DNA from: Catenulispora pinistramenti
GTDB taxonomy: Bacteria > Actinomycetota > Actinomycetes > Streptomycetales > Catenulisporaceae
Direction of reading: 5' to 3'
Length of the DNA: 64,000 bases
NCBI RefSeq assembly: GCF_018274385.1
Contig: NZ_JAAFYZ010000022.1
Coordinates: 1-64,000 of the forward strand
The notes below the pieces were generated by a model. It made no database searches. It had not been told where the DNA came from and saw only the letters and a list, made by a program, of their open reading frames with translations. Shown here piece by piece: positions 3,604-38,300 of this stretch. The position numbers and the translations under genes are program-made. Numbering within the stretch: position 1 is the stretch's first letter; every line of letters begins with the position of its first letter.

Positions 3604-4221
3604 TCAGAACCCGATGACCTCTCGCAGGAGCAGTACGGTGCCACGCCCCGGAATCAGTTCCCTATTGAGGACAAGCAGGCGGCTCACAATAGAGGGCGAG
3701 CCATACGCCGCCATTGTGCGCTTGCTCTCTAGAGGGAGACTGTGTTCCTCTACCCGGCGTAGCGCAGTAGTCAGGTCGGGTACTACCTTCTGCGCGCCGA
3801 CGATCCAGATCGCATGCGCGGCGCCGCCGGCGCTGGCCGGTAGTTGGCTTCCGGTCCCCGACGCCAGGACCAGCGAGCCGGTCTCGGTGACCGCGGCGAC
3901 ACTGTTCACGACGTAGTCGGGGGTCGCGGTCAGCTTGCGGATCGTGTCCGCTTCGGTGGCGCGGTCGGCGGCCAGGACCCGCGGCCGGATGGCGTCGTAT
4001 CGGCTTCCGCTATTGATGTCGGAGTCGATACCGGACTCACGCAGGGTCTGGCTCGCGCCGGTGAAGACGCTGGCACCGGCGGGGATCAGGCTCTTCAGGC
4101 GGATGCGGGCGGTCGCGACGTCGTCGAGGATTTCGACGGCGAAACCGCGGTTTTGGAGCGCGGCGGCCGCTCGTTCCAGTTGTTCTGCAGAGGCTGGGAT
4201 GGCAAACGTGGAGTCGTTCAT
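3604..4221 (-). CDS. LUD-domain (LutC-like) protein
   Basis: Protein of 205 residues with the LUD (DUF162) fold found in lactate utilisation proteins LutB/LutC. The central VTETGSLVLASG segment and the C-terminal half fit the domain. It lacks iron-sulphur cysteine motifs, so it is not a full LutB. The ATG at 4221 lies only about two bases below the predicted transcription start of the divergent ECF41-type promoter, so the message is probably leaderless. The methyltransferase follows 33 bp downstream. A LUD protein next to an ECF41 sigma factor is not the usual partner I know. Confidence 0.85.
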   Translation of the reverse strand: MNDSTFAIPASAEQLERAAAALQNRGFAVEILDDVATARIRLKSLIPAGASVFTGASQTLRESGIDSDINSGSRYDAIRPRVLAADRATEADTIRKLTATPDYVVNSVAAVTETGSLVLASGTGSQLPASAGGAAHAIWIVGAQKVVPDLTTALRRVEEHSLPLESKRTMAAYGSPSIVSRLLVLNRELIPGRGTVLLLREVIGF

Positions 4222-4226
4222 ACCAA

Positions 4227-4294
4227 TACGACAAGACGGCTCTGCAGAGTGTGAGGCGTGTCGGCCTCACAGTGGGGAGGGCTGTCTTGTCGTA
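4227..4294. promoter_or_regulatory. Symmetric divergent ECF41-type promoter pair
   Basis: The whole intergenic region has one dyad axis at 4260.5. Inner arms are TGTGAGGC (4250-4257) and GCCTCACA (4264-4271). Outer arms are TACGACAAGAC (4227-4237) and GTCTTGTCGTA (4284-4294). Read outward on either strand this gives CCTCACA, 16 bp, TGTC, close to the ECF41 consensus TGTCACA-N16-CGTC. The plus promoter serves the sigma factor gene; the minus promoter serves the LUD gene. Confidence 0.8.
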
Positions 4295-4335
4295 ATAGGT
4301 GGGGGCATAGATGCGAGCGAGGAGACGGGGACACT

Positions 4336-5292
4336 ATGACGGCGCCATCCGAGCCGAAGCCGGACCCGGACCCGGACTCTGGAGAAGCTGATCCCGGCCT
4401 GAGCGCGCTCATGAGTGAGCGGCGTCAGCTGATCAACCTCGGCTACCGGCTCCTCGGATCCCTCGCCGACGCCGAGGACGTCGTCCAGGAGACCTACCTC
4501 CGCTGGTACGCCTTGTCCGCGCAGCAACAACAGGCGATCGAGTCGCCCGGCGCGTGGCTGATGACGGTCGCCAGCCGCATCTGCCTGAACCAGCTCGCGT
4601 CGGCGCGGGTGAGGCGGGAATCGTATGTGGGCGAGTGGATCCCGGAGCCGCTGCCCGAGCCCGGGGAGTGGATCACCGGGCAGCCGGGTGCCGGCGGGCT
4701 CGATCCGGCGGACCGCGTCACCCTCGACGAGTCGGTGACCATGGCGTTCCTGGTCGTGCTCGACGCGATGACCCCCGCCGAGCGGGTGGCGTTCGTCCTG
4801 CACGACGTGTACCGATTCCCGTTCCCCGAGATCGCCGAGATCGTCGGCCGCACCCCGGCTGCCTGCCGCCAACTGGCCTCGTCCGCCCGCCGCCGCATCC
4901 GTGCCGCGCGGGCGCCGGACGGACCGAGTACCGAGCAGGCGGCGATCGTGCGCGACTTCAAGGCGGCGTGGGCGGCCCAGGACATCGACGCGCTGATCGG
5001 CCTGCTCGACCCGGACGCCACCGCGACCGCCGACGGCGGCGGCCTGGTCAACGCGCACCTGGACCCGATCATGGGCGGCGTGCGAGTGGCGCACGCCTAC
5101 GCCGAACTCGCCGGTCGGGTGCGCGACCGCGCGACGTTCCTGGAATACACGGTCAACGGCCGGCCCGGCCTGGTCGCGGTGCAGGACGGCCGCACCGTGA
5201 GCGTGTTCGCGTTCGACATCGTGGGCGGGCGGATCCGGCACATCTGGGCGGTGGCGAACCCCGAGAAGATCCGGCCGTGGCGGCTCGGCTGA
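4336..5292 (+). CDS. sigJ: RNA polymerase sigma factor, ECF41 (SigJ) group
   Basis: ECF sigma factor of 318 residues with a fused C-terminal SnoaL-like regulatory domain in place of an anti-sigma factor. Sigma-2 covers about residues 25-95 and sigma-4 about 140-195. Group signatures are seen: WIPEP in the linker, and in the SnoaL part DGGG and NPEKI (variant of NPDKL). The start is ATG 4336 with GAGGAG upstream; the longer frame to 4258 would begin inside the promoter. The promoter matches the sigma factor's own group, so autoregulation together with the divergent LUD gene is likely. Confidence 0.92.
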   Translation: MTAPSEPKPDPDPDSGEADPGLSALMSERRQLINLGYRLLGSLADAEDVVQETYLRWYALSAQQQQAIESPGAWLMTVASRICLNQLASARVRRESYVGEWIPEPLPEPGEWITGQPGAGGLDPADRVTLDESVTMAFLVVLDAMTPAERVAFVLHDVYRFPFPEIAEIVGRTPAACRQLASSARRRIRAARAPDGPSTEQAAIVRDFKAAWAAQDIDALIGLLDPDATATADGGGLVNAHLDPIMGGVRVAHAYAELAGRVRDRATFLEYTVNGRPGLVAVQDGRTVSVFAFDIVGGRIRHIWAVANPEKIRPWRLG

Positions 5293-36261: not shown

Positions 36262-37293
36262 ATGCGTACCTACCGTTTGCCGGGACCCGGCCCGCTCGAC
36301 GACCTCAAGCTCGCCACCGAAGACATGCCGACCCCCGGCCCCAACCAACTCCTGGTCGCGACCAGGGCCGCGGCGGTCAACCGCCGCGACCTGCTCATCA
36401 TCACCGGCCGCTATCCGCTTCCGACCCGGGCCGGGGTGATCCCGCTCAGCGACGGCGCCGGCGAGGTCGTCGCGGTCGGGGACGCCGTCCGCCGCTTCGC
36501 CGTCGGCGACCGGGTCACCGCTTCGTACTGGCCGCGGTGGATCAGCGGCCGGCTCCGGCCGGAGGTGGTCGACCAGCTCGGCTGCACCGTCGACGGCTGG
36601 CTGACCGAGTACGCGCTGCTCGACCAGGCCGCGGCGGTGGCCGTGCCCGAGCACCTGACCTGGGCCGAAGCCGCGGCGCTGCCCTGCGCCGGGGTGTCGG
36701 CCTGGAACGCGCTCACCCGGCCCGGGACGCTGACCGCCGGACAGACGGTGCTGGTCCTCGGAACCGGCGACGTCGCCCTGTTCGCGGCCCAGCTCGCCAA
36801 GGCGATGGGCTGCCGCGTGATCGCCACGACGTCCAGCGCGGCGAAAGCCGAGCGGCTCAGAGGTATAGGCGTGGACGACGTGGTCGACTACGTCGCGACG
36901 CCGGAATGGTCGAAAGAGGTCCGCGCGCTGACCGGTGGCGCGGGCGCTGATCTGGTGGTGGAGACCCAAGGTCCGGCGACCTTCGGCCAGTCGTTGCGAG
37001 CAGCGGCCACCTACGCTCAGATCTGCCTGCTCTGGGTCGCGTCCCCGCGGCCGGAAGTCCTGACCATCACCGAGGACGACCTCATGGGCTCGCTGGCCAC
37101 CATCCGCCGCGAGTTCGTCGGCAATCGGGTGGAGCTGGAAGCGCTGTGCCAGGCGCTCGCGGCGCACCGGATCCGGCCGATCGTGGACCGGGCCTTCGGG
37201 TTCGACGACGCGATCGCCGCCTATCGCTCCTACCGTGATGAGGACAGCTTCGGGAAGGTCGTCGTCGAGATCGACTCCACGCAGCCCGCTTGA
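36262..37293 (+). CDS. Zinc-independent alcohol dehydrogenase / quinone oxidoreductase-like protein
   Basis: MDR-superfamily oxidoreductase of 343 residues. The GroES-like N-terminal part (VNRRDLLIITGRYP, PLSDGAGEVVAVG) is followed by a Rossmann domain with VLVLGTGDVALFAAQLAK. It lacks the cysteine clusters of zinc enzymes. MmyB-family regulators often control a divergent oxidoreductase, as here. The ECF41-type promoter of the next gene starts 8 bp after the stop. Confidence 0.88.
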   Translation: MRTYRLPGPGPLDDLKLATEDMPTPGPNQLLVATRAAAVNRRDLLIITGRYPLPTRAGVIPLSDGAGEVVAVGDAVRRFAVGDRVTASYWPRWISGRLRPEVVDQLGCTVDGWLTEYALLDQAAAVAVPEHLTWAEAAALPCAGVSAWNALTRPGTLTAGQTVLVLGTGDVALFAAQLAKAMGCRVIATTSSAAKAERLRGIGVDDVVDYVATPEWSKEVRALTGGAGADLVVETQGPATFGQSLRAAATYAQICLLWVASPRPEVLTITEDDLMGSLATIRREFVGNRVELEALCQALAAHRIRPIVDRAFGFDDAIAAYRSYRDEDSFGKVVVEIDSTQPA

Positions 37294-37300
37294 GTTCCGA

Positions 37301-37327
37301 TGTCACAGGCGGGGAGGCCGTCTCGTC
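37301..37327 (+). promoter_or_regulatory. Exact ECF41 consensus promoter
   Basis: TGTCACA (37301-37307), 16 bp, CGTC (37324-37327) is an exact match to the ECF41 group promoter as I recall it. It lies 53 bp before the start at 37380 and resembles the 4265-4291 promoter even within the spacer (GGGGAGG, GTCT). Confidence 0.85.
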
Positions 37328-37379
37328 TCGTGCGATGACAGGGCTGTCGAGTGGGCCGGGATCGAGGGAAGGGGCCGGT

Positions 37380-38300
37380 ATGACGCGCGACGAGGAGTTC
37401 CAGGACTTGCGACCGCTGCTGTTCTCGATCGCGTACCGGATCCTGGGCAGCGTGGTCGAAGCCGAGGACGCGGTGCAGGACACCTGGCTGCGCTGGCAGG
37501 CCACGTCCACGGAGCCGGTCTCGACGAAGTCCTACCCCTCGGCGGTGGTCACGCGGATCTCGATCGACGTGCTGCGCTCGGCACGGGTGCGGCGGGAGGC
37601 CTACGTCGGGCCGTGGATGCCCGAGCCGTTGCTGGCCGACCCCTACGAGGACCCCGAGCGCGCGGCCGAACTGGCCGACTCGCTGTCCACGGCCGCGCTG
37701 CTCCTGCTGGAACGCCTGTCCCCGCTGGAGCGCGCGGTGTTCGTGCTCCGCGAGGTGTTCGGCTTCGGCTTCCCCGAGGTGGCCTCGGCGGTCGGCCGCT
37801 CGGAGGCGGCGTGCCGGCAGCTCGCGGTGCGGGCCCGGCGGCACATGAGCGAGGGCCGGCCGCGCTTCGAGGCCGACCACCGCGAACGCGAGGAACTGGC
37901 CGGCCGCTTCTTCGACTCCTTCCGCGAGGGCGACGTCGCGGCCTTGCGCGAACTGCTGGCGGCCGATGTGCACCTGGTCGGCGACAACGGCGGCAAGGCC
38001 CCGCTGATCACGCAGGAGGCGTGGGGCGCCGACACGGTCGCTGGACTGATGGTGCAGGTGCTGGAGCGCTTTGACCGGATCGGCGTCAGCCTGGAGCCGC
38101 GCACCCTCAACGGGCAGCCCGGCGCCATCTGCCACGCGCCGGACGGGAAGGTGCTCAGCGTGCTGACACTGGACGTCGCCGAGGGCCGGATCCAGGCCAT
38201 CCACGCGCTGGTCAACCCGGACAAGCTCGCGCACGTGGGCCCGGTCGCCGATATCTGGGCACTGAGCCGGGCGGCGGAGCAGGGGACTCCGGGGGAGTAG
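37380..38300 (+). CDS. sigJ: RNA polymerase sigma factor, ECF41 (SigJ) group, second copy
   Basis: ECF sigma factor of 306 residues with a fused SnoaL-like C-terminal domain. Sigma-2 is at about 8-75 and sigma-4 at about 115-170. Group motifs: WMPEP in the linker, DNGGK and a perfect NPDKL in the SnoaL part. The start is ATG 37380 with GAGGGAAGGGG upstream; the frame is open to 37290 but that start precedes the promoter. It is probably autoregulated. Its likely partner is the upstream oxidoreductase, which fits the usual ECF41 neighbourhood. Confidence 0.92.
   Translation: MTRDEEFQDLRPLLFSIAYRILGSVVEAEDAVQDTWLRWQATSTEPVSTKSYPSAVVTRISIDVLRSARVRREAYVGPWMPEPLLADPYEDPERAAELADSLSTAALLLLERLSPLERAVFVLREVFGFGFPEVASAVGRSEAACRQLAVRARRHMSEGRPRFEADHREREELAGRFFDSFREGDVAALRELLAADVHLVGDNGGKAPLITQEAWGADTVAGLMVQVLERFDRIGVSLEPRTLNGQPGAICHAPDGKVLSVLTLDVAEGRIQAIHALVNPDKLAHVGPVADIWALSRAAEQGTPGE

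What the first reader, a model, noticed from the sequence alone, without database searches (positions are those of the whole stretch)
4227..4294. Almost perfect dyad holding two divergent ECF41-type promoters, with a LUD protein as partner
The intergenic region is symmetric about 4260.5 with both inner 8-bp arms and outer 11-bp arms. On each strand it reads CCTCACA-N16-TGTC, near the ECF41 consensus TGTCACA-N16-CGTC. The sigma factor and the LUD gene thus seem to be fired equally by the same factor. The LUD start is about two bases from the predicted transcript start, implying a leaderless message. LUD proteins are not among the usual ECF41 partners I know (carboxymuconolactone decarboxylases, oxidoreductases, epimerases).
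Basis: partly seen in the sequence, partly recalled or inferred. Interest (0 to 1): 0.75.

Follow-up and report, generated by a model that had tools for sequence, protein, structure and literature searches.

The report
Self-regulated ECF41 sigma–LUD gene pair
Two near-identical back-to-back start signals, apparently read by one alternative sigma factor, should switch on both that factor's own gene and a LUD-domain gene; the pair is conserved across actinomycetes, and its promoter has changed at the very base that an altered amino acid of the sigma factor should touch.

Summary
The 4227-4294 dyad (25 of 31 pairs) is the best in the 64-kb window. It is two divergent copies of one promoter, CCTCACA-N16-TGTC, facing an ECF41 (SigJ-type) sigma gene and a LUD gene. 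The unit is conserved: 72 of 87 LUD loci carry the sigma gene divergently next door, in six actinomycete families. 44 of the 72 have the motif both ways; only 2 of 15 loci without sigma have it; this genome holds no other perfect copy in 11.46 Mb. Other ECF41 factors in this genome, where a promoter was found, use canonical (T/C)GTCACA.

The -35 change (G-35 to C) coincides with Arg to Ser at sigma4 residue 183 in all 71 clade members. The equivalent Arg in SigW and sigma-E bonds G-35. Two Gln183 relatives also lie beside C-35 promoters. This looks like sigma-promoter co-evolution and is directly testable.

In 16 loci LUD carries an N-terminal SnoaL_4 domain, the fold class of the sigma's own extension. 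The leaderless LUD geometry occurs only here and in C. pinisilvae. 'Fired equally' is unsupported: the promoters overlap and probably compete. Verdict: real; a new variant of a known kind.

The parts
4227..4294 (.). imperfect dyad = two head-to-head copies of one ECF41-type promoter (arms 4227-4257 / 4264-4294)
4230..4256 (-). LUD-directed promoter CCTCACA-CTCTGCAGAGCCGTCT-TGTC (-35 4256-4250, -10 4233-4230)
   Evidence: conserved in orthologues
4265..4291 (+). sigma-directed promoter CCTCACA-GTGGGGAGGGCTGTCT-TGTC (-35 4265-4271, -10 4288-4291)
3604..4221 (-). LUD-domain protein, 205 aa (PF02589); ATG 8 nt after the -10, no Shine-Dalgarno: probably leaderless
4336..5292 (+). ECF41 / SigJ-type sigma factor, 318 aa, sigma2 + sigma4 + SnoaL-like C-terminal extension
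4319..4324 (+). Shine-Dalgarno GAGGAG of the sigma gene
4624..4650 (+). ECF41 linker signature YVGEWIPEP (canonical YVGPWLPEP)
   Evidence: signature as given in PMC7730460
4882..4884 (+). codon for Ser183 in the sigma4 recognition helix (Arg in 31 of 32 other ECF41 sampled); equivalent to SigW R175 / sigma-E R176, which contact G-35
4948..5163 (+). SnoaL_2-like C-terminal extension (weak Pfam hit here, E 0.0045; clearer in the WrbA-linked sister, E 1.2e-6)

Best explanation
The dyad is a pair of overlapping, divergent promoters for one autoregulated ECF41-family sigma factor. When the sigma's SnoaL-like C-terminal extension is relieved by a still unknown signal, the holoenzyme binds CCTCACA-N16-TGTC on either strand and transcribes its own gene rightward and the LUD gene leftward; in this species the LUD mRNA starts at or within a few bases of its ATG. 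Because the two -35s are only 8 bp apart, probably one polymerase at a time can occupy the site, so the two directions compete. The sigma belongs to a monophyletic ECF41 subclade whose sigma4 recognition helix carries Ser instead of Arg at position 183 and whose -35 has C instead of G at the base that this Arg contacts in SigW and sigma-E; that pair of changes would insulate the circuit from the other ECF41 factors of the same cell. Its predicted regulon is these two genes only. Shown by sequence: anatomy, conservation, clade, residue and base changes, uniqueness of the motif. Inferred: transcription itself, signal, competition, insulation, enzymatic role of LUD.
For: Both promoters present and symmetric. 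72 of 87 LUD loci have the sigma gene divergent within 1.5 kb; motif both ways in 44, sigma side only 17, LUD side only 6, neither 5; in 15 loci without sigma the motif occurs in 2. Close head-to-head spacing kept: 11 bp between -35s in 35 of 44, 8 in 4, 10 in 2, and 9, 5, 0 once each. In the 11.46-Mb genome only the two dyad sites match the clade consensus perfectly. Sigma: NCBIfam SigJ subfamily above cut-off, best PDB match Mtb SigJ 5xe7, WIPEP and NPEK motifs. LUD/WrbA-linked sigmas form one clade, SH-aLRT 100 in a quick tree. Residue 183 = Ser in 69/69 plus 2 further orthologues, Arg in 31/32 others; that Arg H-bonds G-35 in SigW and sigma-E (PMC6713349). Arg183 sigmas have G at that base in (T/C/A)GTCACA; the two Gln183 sigmas outside the clade lie next to TCTCACA.
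Against: No transcript or binding data. Three sigma-directed promoters of Ser183 members have G at the second position (CGTCAC). 28 of 72 loci lack a recognisable motif on one or both sides. The Ser change is one evolutionary event, so its 71 members are not independent; of the two Gln cases, L011's promoter could be read by the Ser183 sigma of the same genome, and their independence from each other rests on weak support. Position 183 was matched to SigW R175 by the helix pattern, not by a structure of this protein. Competition between polymerases is inferred from distances only.
Confidence: 0.78

Rival explanations
1. The dyad is the operator of a dimeric DNA-binding repressor or activator, and its likeness to ECF41 promoters is secondary or additional.
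For: Long near-symmetric dyad in a divergent intergenic region; the head-to-head spacing is well kept (11 bp in 35 of 44); spacer bases of the promoters are conserved too, more than a bare -35/-10 pair needs.
Against: No regulator gene other than the sigma is conserved beside the pair in the loci read; each half carries a full -35/N16/-10 at ECF41 spacing; the spacing between halves also takes values 0, 5, 8, 9 and 10, which a rigid dimer operator would not tolerate well; many loci keep only one half; the GCTGTCTYGTC stretch is also seen in canonical single ECF41 promoters.
Confidence: 0.08
2. Only the sigma-directed promoter is active; the LUD-directed copy is a relic or weak and LUD is expressed from elsewhere.
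For: In 17 of 72 loci only the sigma side has the motif.
Against: LUD-side motif found in 50 of 72 loci, including loci where it precedes a SnoaL-LUD fusion; in this species it keeps all -35 and -10 bases; only 8 nt lie between it and the ATG.
Confidence: 0.12
3. The Arg183Ser / G-35C pair is coincidental clade drift, not a specificity change; the promoter pair is real but the sigma would also read TGTCACA.
For: Single ancestral event in the main clade; three Ser183 loci have CGTCAC on the sigma side.
Against: Structures place exactly this Arg on exactly this base; Gln183 relatives also show C at that base.
Confidence: 0.3

Closest known systems
ECF41 sigma factors with divergent COE genes (<ECF< >COE>), Wecke et al. 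2012, PMC3426412
   Same: Sigma with SnoaL-like extension, no anti-sigma, divergent neighbour, promoter motif before both genes, single-target regulon
   Different: Partner is LUD (or SnoaL-LUD, or in a sister clade a WrbA-like flavoprotein), not the carboxymuconolactone decarboxylases, oxidoreductases or epimerases described there; -35 is CCTCACA, not TGTCACA; recognition helix has Ser183, not Arg
Mycobacterium tuberculosis SigJ (5xe7)
   Same: Same domain order, linker and C-terminal motifs; best PDB sequence match
   Different: Arg at the residue equivalent to 183 (alignment)
LutC / DR_1909 (2g40) and the lutABC operon, PMC3924224
   Same: LUD fold (Foldseek E 1.3e-6)
   Different: About 16% identity; no lutA or lutB beside it; under an ECF sigma; N-terminal SnoaL_4 fusion in 16 relatives
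ECF56 SigG1 of S. tsukubaensis, PMC7730460
   Same: SnoaL_2-type extension
   Different: SigG1 lacks the NPDKL motif and has an anti-sigma; ours keeps WIPEP and NPEK motifs and has no such neighbour

Membership tests
ECF41 | sigma2 + sigma4 with C-terminal SnoaL-like extension | tested here: met
   Pfam sigma2/sigma4; SnoaL_2 weak here (E 0.0045), significant in the sister clade; SigJ subfamily model above cut-off over residues 27-313
ECF41 | YVGPWLPEP linker and NPDKL C-terminal motif | tested here: met
   YVGEWIPEP and NPEKI here; similar in 62-63 of 67 clade members
ECF41 | promoter TGTCACA-N16-CGTC | tested here: not met
   CCTCACA-N16-TGTC in the clade; spacing and TCACA core kept, first two bases changed. 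Hence filed as a variant subgroup
ECF41 | COE gene next to the sigma gene (about 64% of ECF41 in 2012; not obligatory) | tested here: not met
   LUD partner; several paralogs in the same genome do have COE-type neighbours
ECF41 | no adjacent anti-sigma factor | tested here: met
   flanking genes are a SAM methyltransferase and a cytidine deaminase
ECF41 | assignment in the 2021 ECF reclassification | not testable with these tools
   paper and models not held
LUD family (PF02589) | LUD domain match above gathering score and LutC-like fold | tested here: met
   69.4 bits vs 22.6; model pLDDT 91.6, best solved folds LutB and LutC
LutC of lactate utilisation | lutAB neighbours | tested here: not met
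   absent from the immediate flanks
LutC of lactate utilisation | cavity residues Y55, H201, R204 of LutC | not tested
   no residue-level superposition made

The most novel reading that the evidence does not exclude
An actinomycete ECF41 subclade re-wired its promoter specificity by Arg183Ser matched with G-35 to C, insulating a self-amplifying two-gene circuit whose sensor (SnoaL-like sigma extension) and whose output protein (SnoaL_4-LUD in many relatives) use the same class of ligand-binding fold, so that the target enzyme may consume the inducer.
Probability: 0.35. Interest if true: 0.75.

Novelty: new variant of a known kind. Interest (0 to 1): 0.6.

Why it matters
How closely related ECF sigma factors stay apart in one cell is rarely traceable to one residue and one base. 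Here about ten ECF41-type factors coexist, one of them with a conserved residue-base swap that a single mutation can test; this also bears on the use of ECF factors as orthogonal switches. The pair gives stand-alone LUD proteins, whose function outside lutABC is unknown, a regulatory context and a possible sensor. It may also account for some actinobacterial ECF41 genes that were counted as orphans because they lack a COE neighbour (inference).

Tried and rejected
The extra site C544:23813 (2 mismatches) lies inside a long open reading frame and was dropped. No sequence match of LUD in the PDB; fold search used instead. Literature: no held paper with 'LUD domain' and 'sigma factor', none useful for the -35 letters; the ECF reclassification, the Mtb SigJ structure paper and Lane & Darst 2006 are not held. 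The careful tree did not finish; the quick tree was used. I first thought that loci with an inserted SnoaL part had their promoters moved apart; one search showed they stay 10-11 bp apart, so that argument was dropped. Considered and rejected: pure operator dyad, chance palindrome, LUD as a lut operon member.

Full report
What is there. The window comes from a Catenulispora genome (nearest named relative C. pinisilvae, LUD protein 94% identical). A LUD gene (3604-4221, -) and an ECF sigma gene (4336-5292, +) diverge from a 114-bp gap. Arms 4227-4257 and 4264-4294 pair at 25 of 31 positions about 4260.5, outer 11 and inner 8 unbroken. It is the best such dyad in the window and none of 2000 shuffles came near. 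Each half reads CCTCACA-N16-TGTC outward.

The proteins. Pfam gives LUD_dom (69 bits) for one and sigma2/sigma4 for the other. NCBIfam places the sigma in the SigJ subfamily above cut-off and the best PDB relative is Mtb SigJ. The ECF41 linker and C-terminal signatures are present as YVGEWIPEP and NPEKI (signatures as in PMC7730460). The LUD model (pLDDT 91.6) is closest to LutB and LutC (DR_1909, 2g40) among solved folds. The flanking genes are a SAM methyltransferase and a cytidine deaminase, not lutAB.

Conservation. A scan of GTDB genomes gave 80 LUD loci, all actinomycete. With the family's own genomes, 72 of 87 loci have the sigma gene divergently within 1.5 kb: 44 have the motif on both sides, 17 on the sigma side only, 6 on the LUD side only, 5 on neither; of 15 loci without sigma, 2 have it. 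The families are Catenulisporaceae, Streptomycetaceae, Streptosporangiaceae, Micromonosporaceae, Thermomonosporaceae and Pseudonocardiaceae. The consensus is CCTCACATTCCGGTGCGCTGTCTTGTCG; spacer positions (T two bases after the -35, GCTGTC before the -10) are conserved too, and GCTGTCTYGTC recurs in canonical ECF41 promoters. Between the -35s lie 11 bp in 35 of 44 loci, 8 in 4, 10 in 2 and 9, 5, 0 once each (the stricter count agrees). In this 11.46-Mb genome a clade-consensus pattern finds exactly two perfect sites, both in the dyad, in line with the single-target regulons reported for ECF41 (PMC3426412).

Variants of the partner. In 16 loci the LUD protein carries an N-terminal SnoaL_4-type domain, and in 6 a separate SnoaL-like frame lies upstream of LUD. 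In a Catenulispora genome the sister sigma diverges, with the same double promoter, from a flavodoxin-fold WrbA-like protein; a second genome has the same sister sigma and double promoter. Inference: the target of this circuit is exchangeable, as with COE in ECF41, and SnoaL-type folds on both sensor and target hint at a shared ligand; this was not tested.

Specificity. The same genome has nine more matches to the sigma. Several have an epimerase, a carboxymuconolactone decarboxylase or an oxidoreductase beside them, with (T/C)GTCACA promoters where found, one of them inside this window at 37301-37327. LUD- and WrbA-linked sigmas form one clade (SH-aLRT 100, quick tree). In the recognition helix residue 183 is Ser in all 69 (plus two further orthologues) and Arg in 31 of 32 other ECF41 sampled. 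By helix alignment this is SigW R175 / sigma-E R176, whose side chain bonds O6 of G-35 and lies near -36 (PMC6713349). Setting the AC of TGTCACA on A-32 C-31 puts its G at -35, so TG to CC changes exactly -36/-35. Arg183 sigmas have G there. Two Gln183 sigmas outside the clade (L011, L198) lie next to TCTCACA, and a FastTree tree separates them by Arg members with weak support. L011 is ambiguous because its genome also has a Ser183 sigma. Three Ser183 loci have CGTCAC on the sigma side. I hold the specificity change as likely (about 0.7) and untested.

Leader. The LUD ATG starts 8 nt after the -10 without a Shine-Dalgarno only here and in C. pinisilvae; about 30 other loci have it 32-113 nt away, mostly 49-52, nearly all with a Shine-Dalgarno. 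Leaderless translation is thus probable but lineage-specific.

Equal firing. Predicted starts are about 76 bp apart and the -35s 8 bp apart, so polymerases that reach some 45 bp upstream (general knowledge) would clash. Competition is more likely than equal simultaneous firing; this is geometry, not data.

Conclusion. A real, conserved, probably autoregulated ECF41 variant with a partner not found in the held literature and a probable one-residue/one-base specificity switch. Divergent double ECF41 promoters as such are known: of 55 <ECF< >COE> loci, 36 have the motif before ECF and 41 before COE (PMC3426412).

Noticed in passing
window 37335-38300 (+), promoter 37301-37327, ORF 36262-37293 (+): Second ECF41 sigma (Arg at the 183 position, YVGPWMPEP, NPDKL) with a canonical TGTCACA-N16-CGTC promoter, behind an alcohol dehydrogenase/quinone reductase-like gene: an internal control for the finding.
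   Followed up: yes
window 4184-4192 and 4240-4248: The 9-mer TCTGCAGAG occurs inside the start of the LUD gene and again, inverted, in the spacer of the LUD promoter; the spacer copy is kept in C. pinisilvae.
   Followed up: no
L054:2545-3603 (Streptacidiphilus carbonis): SnoaL_4-LUD fusion with a CCTCACA-type promoter but no sigma gene within 3 kb; a sigma elsewhere may act in trans.
   Followed up: partly
L023, L034, L036, L042: Sigma genes beside LUD that match only in fragments: pseudogenes or draft frameshifts.
   Followed up: no
L011:29-2103 (G004): Tandem, not divergent, pair: Gln183 ECF41 sigma followed by a SnoaL-LUD fusion with a TCTCACA promoter, perhaps a separate recruitment of LUD.
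   Followed up: partly
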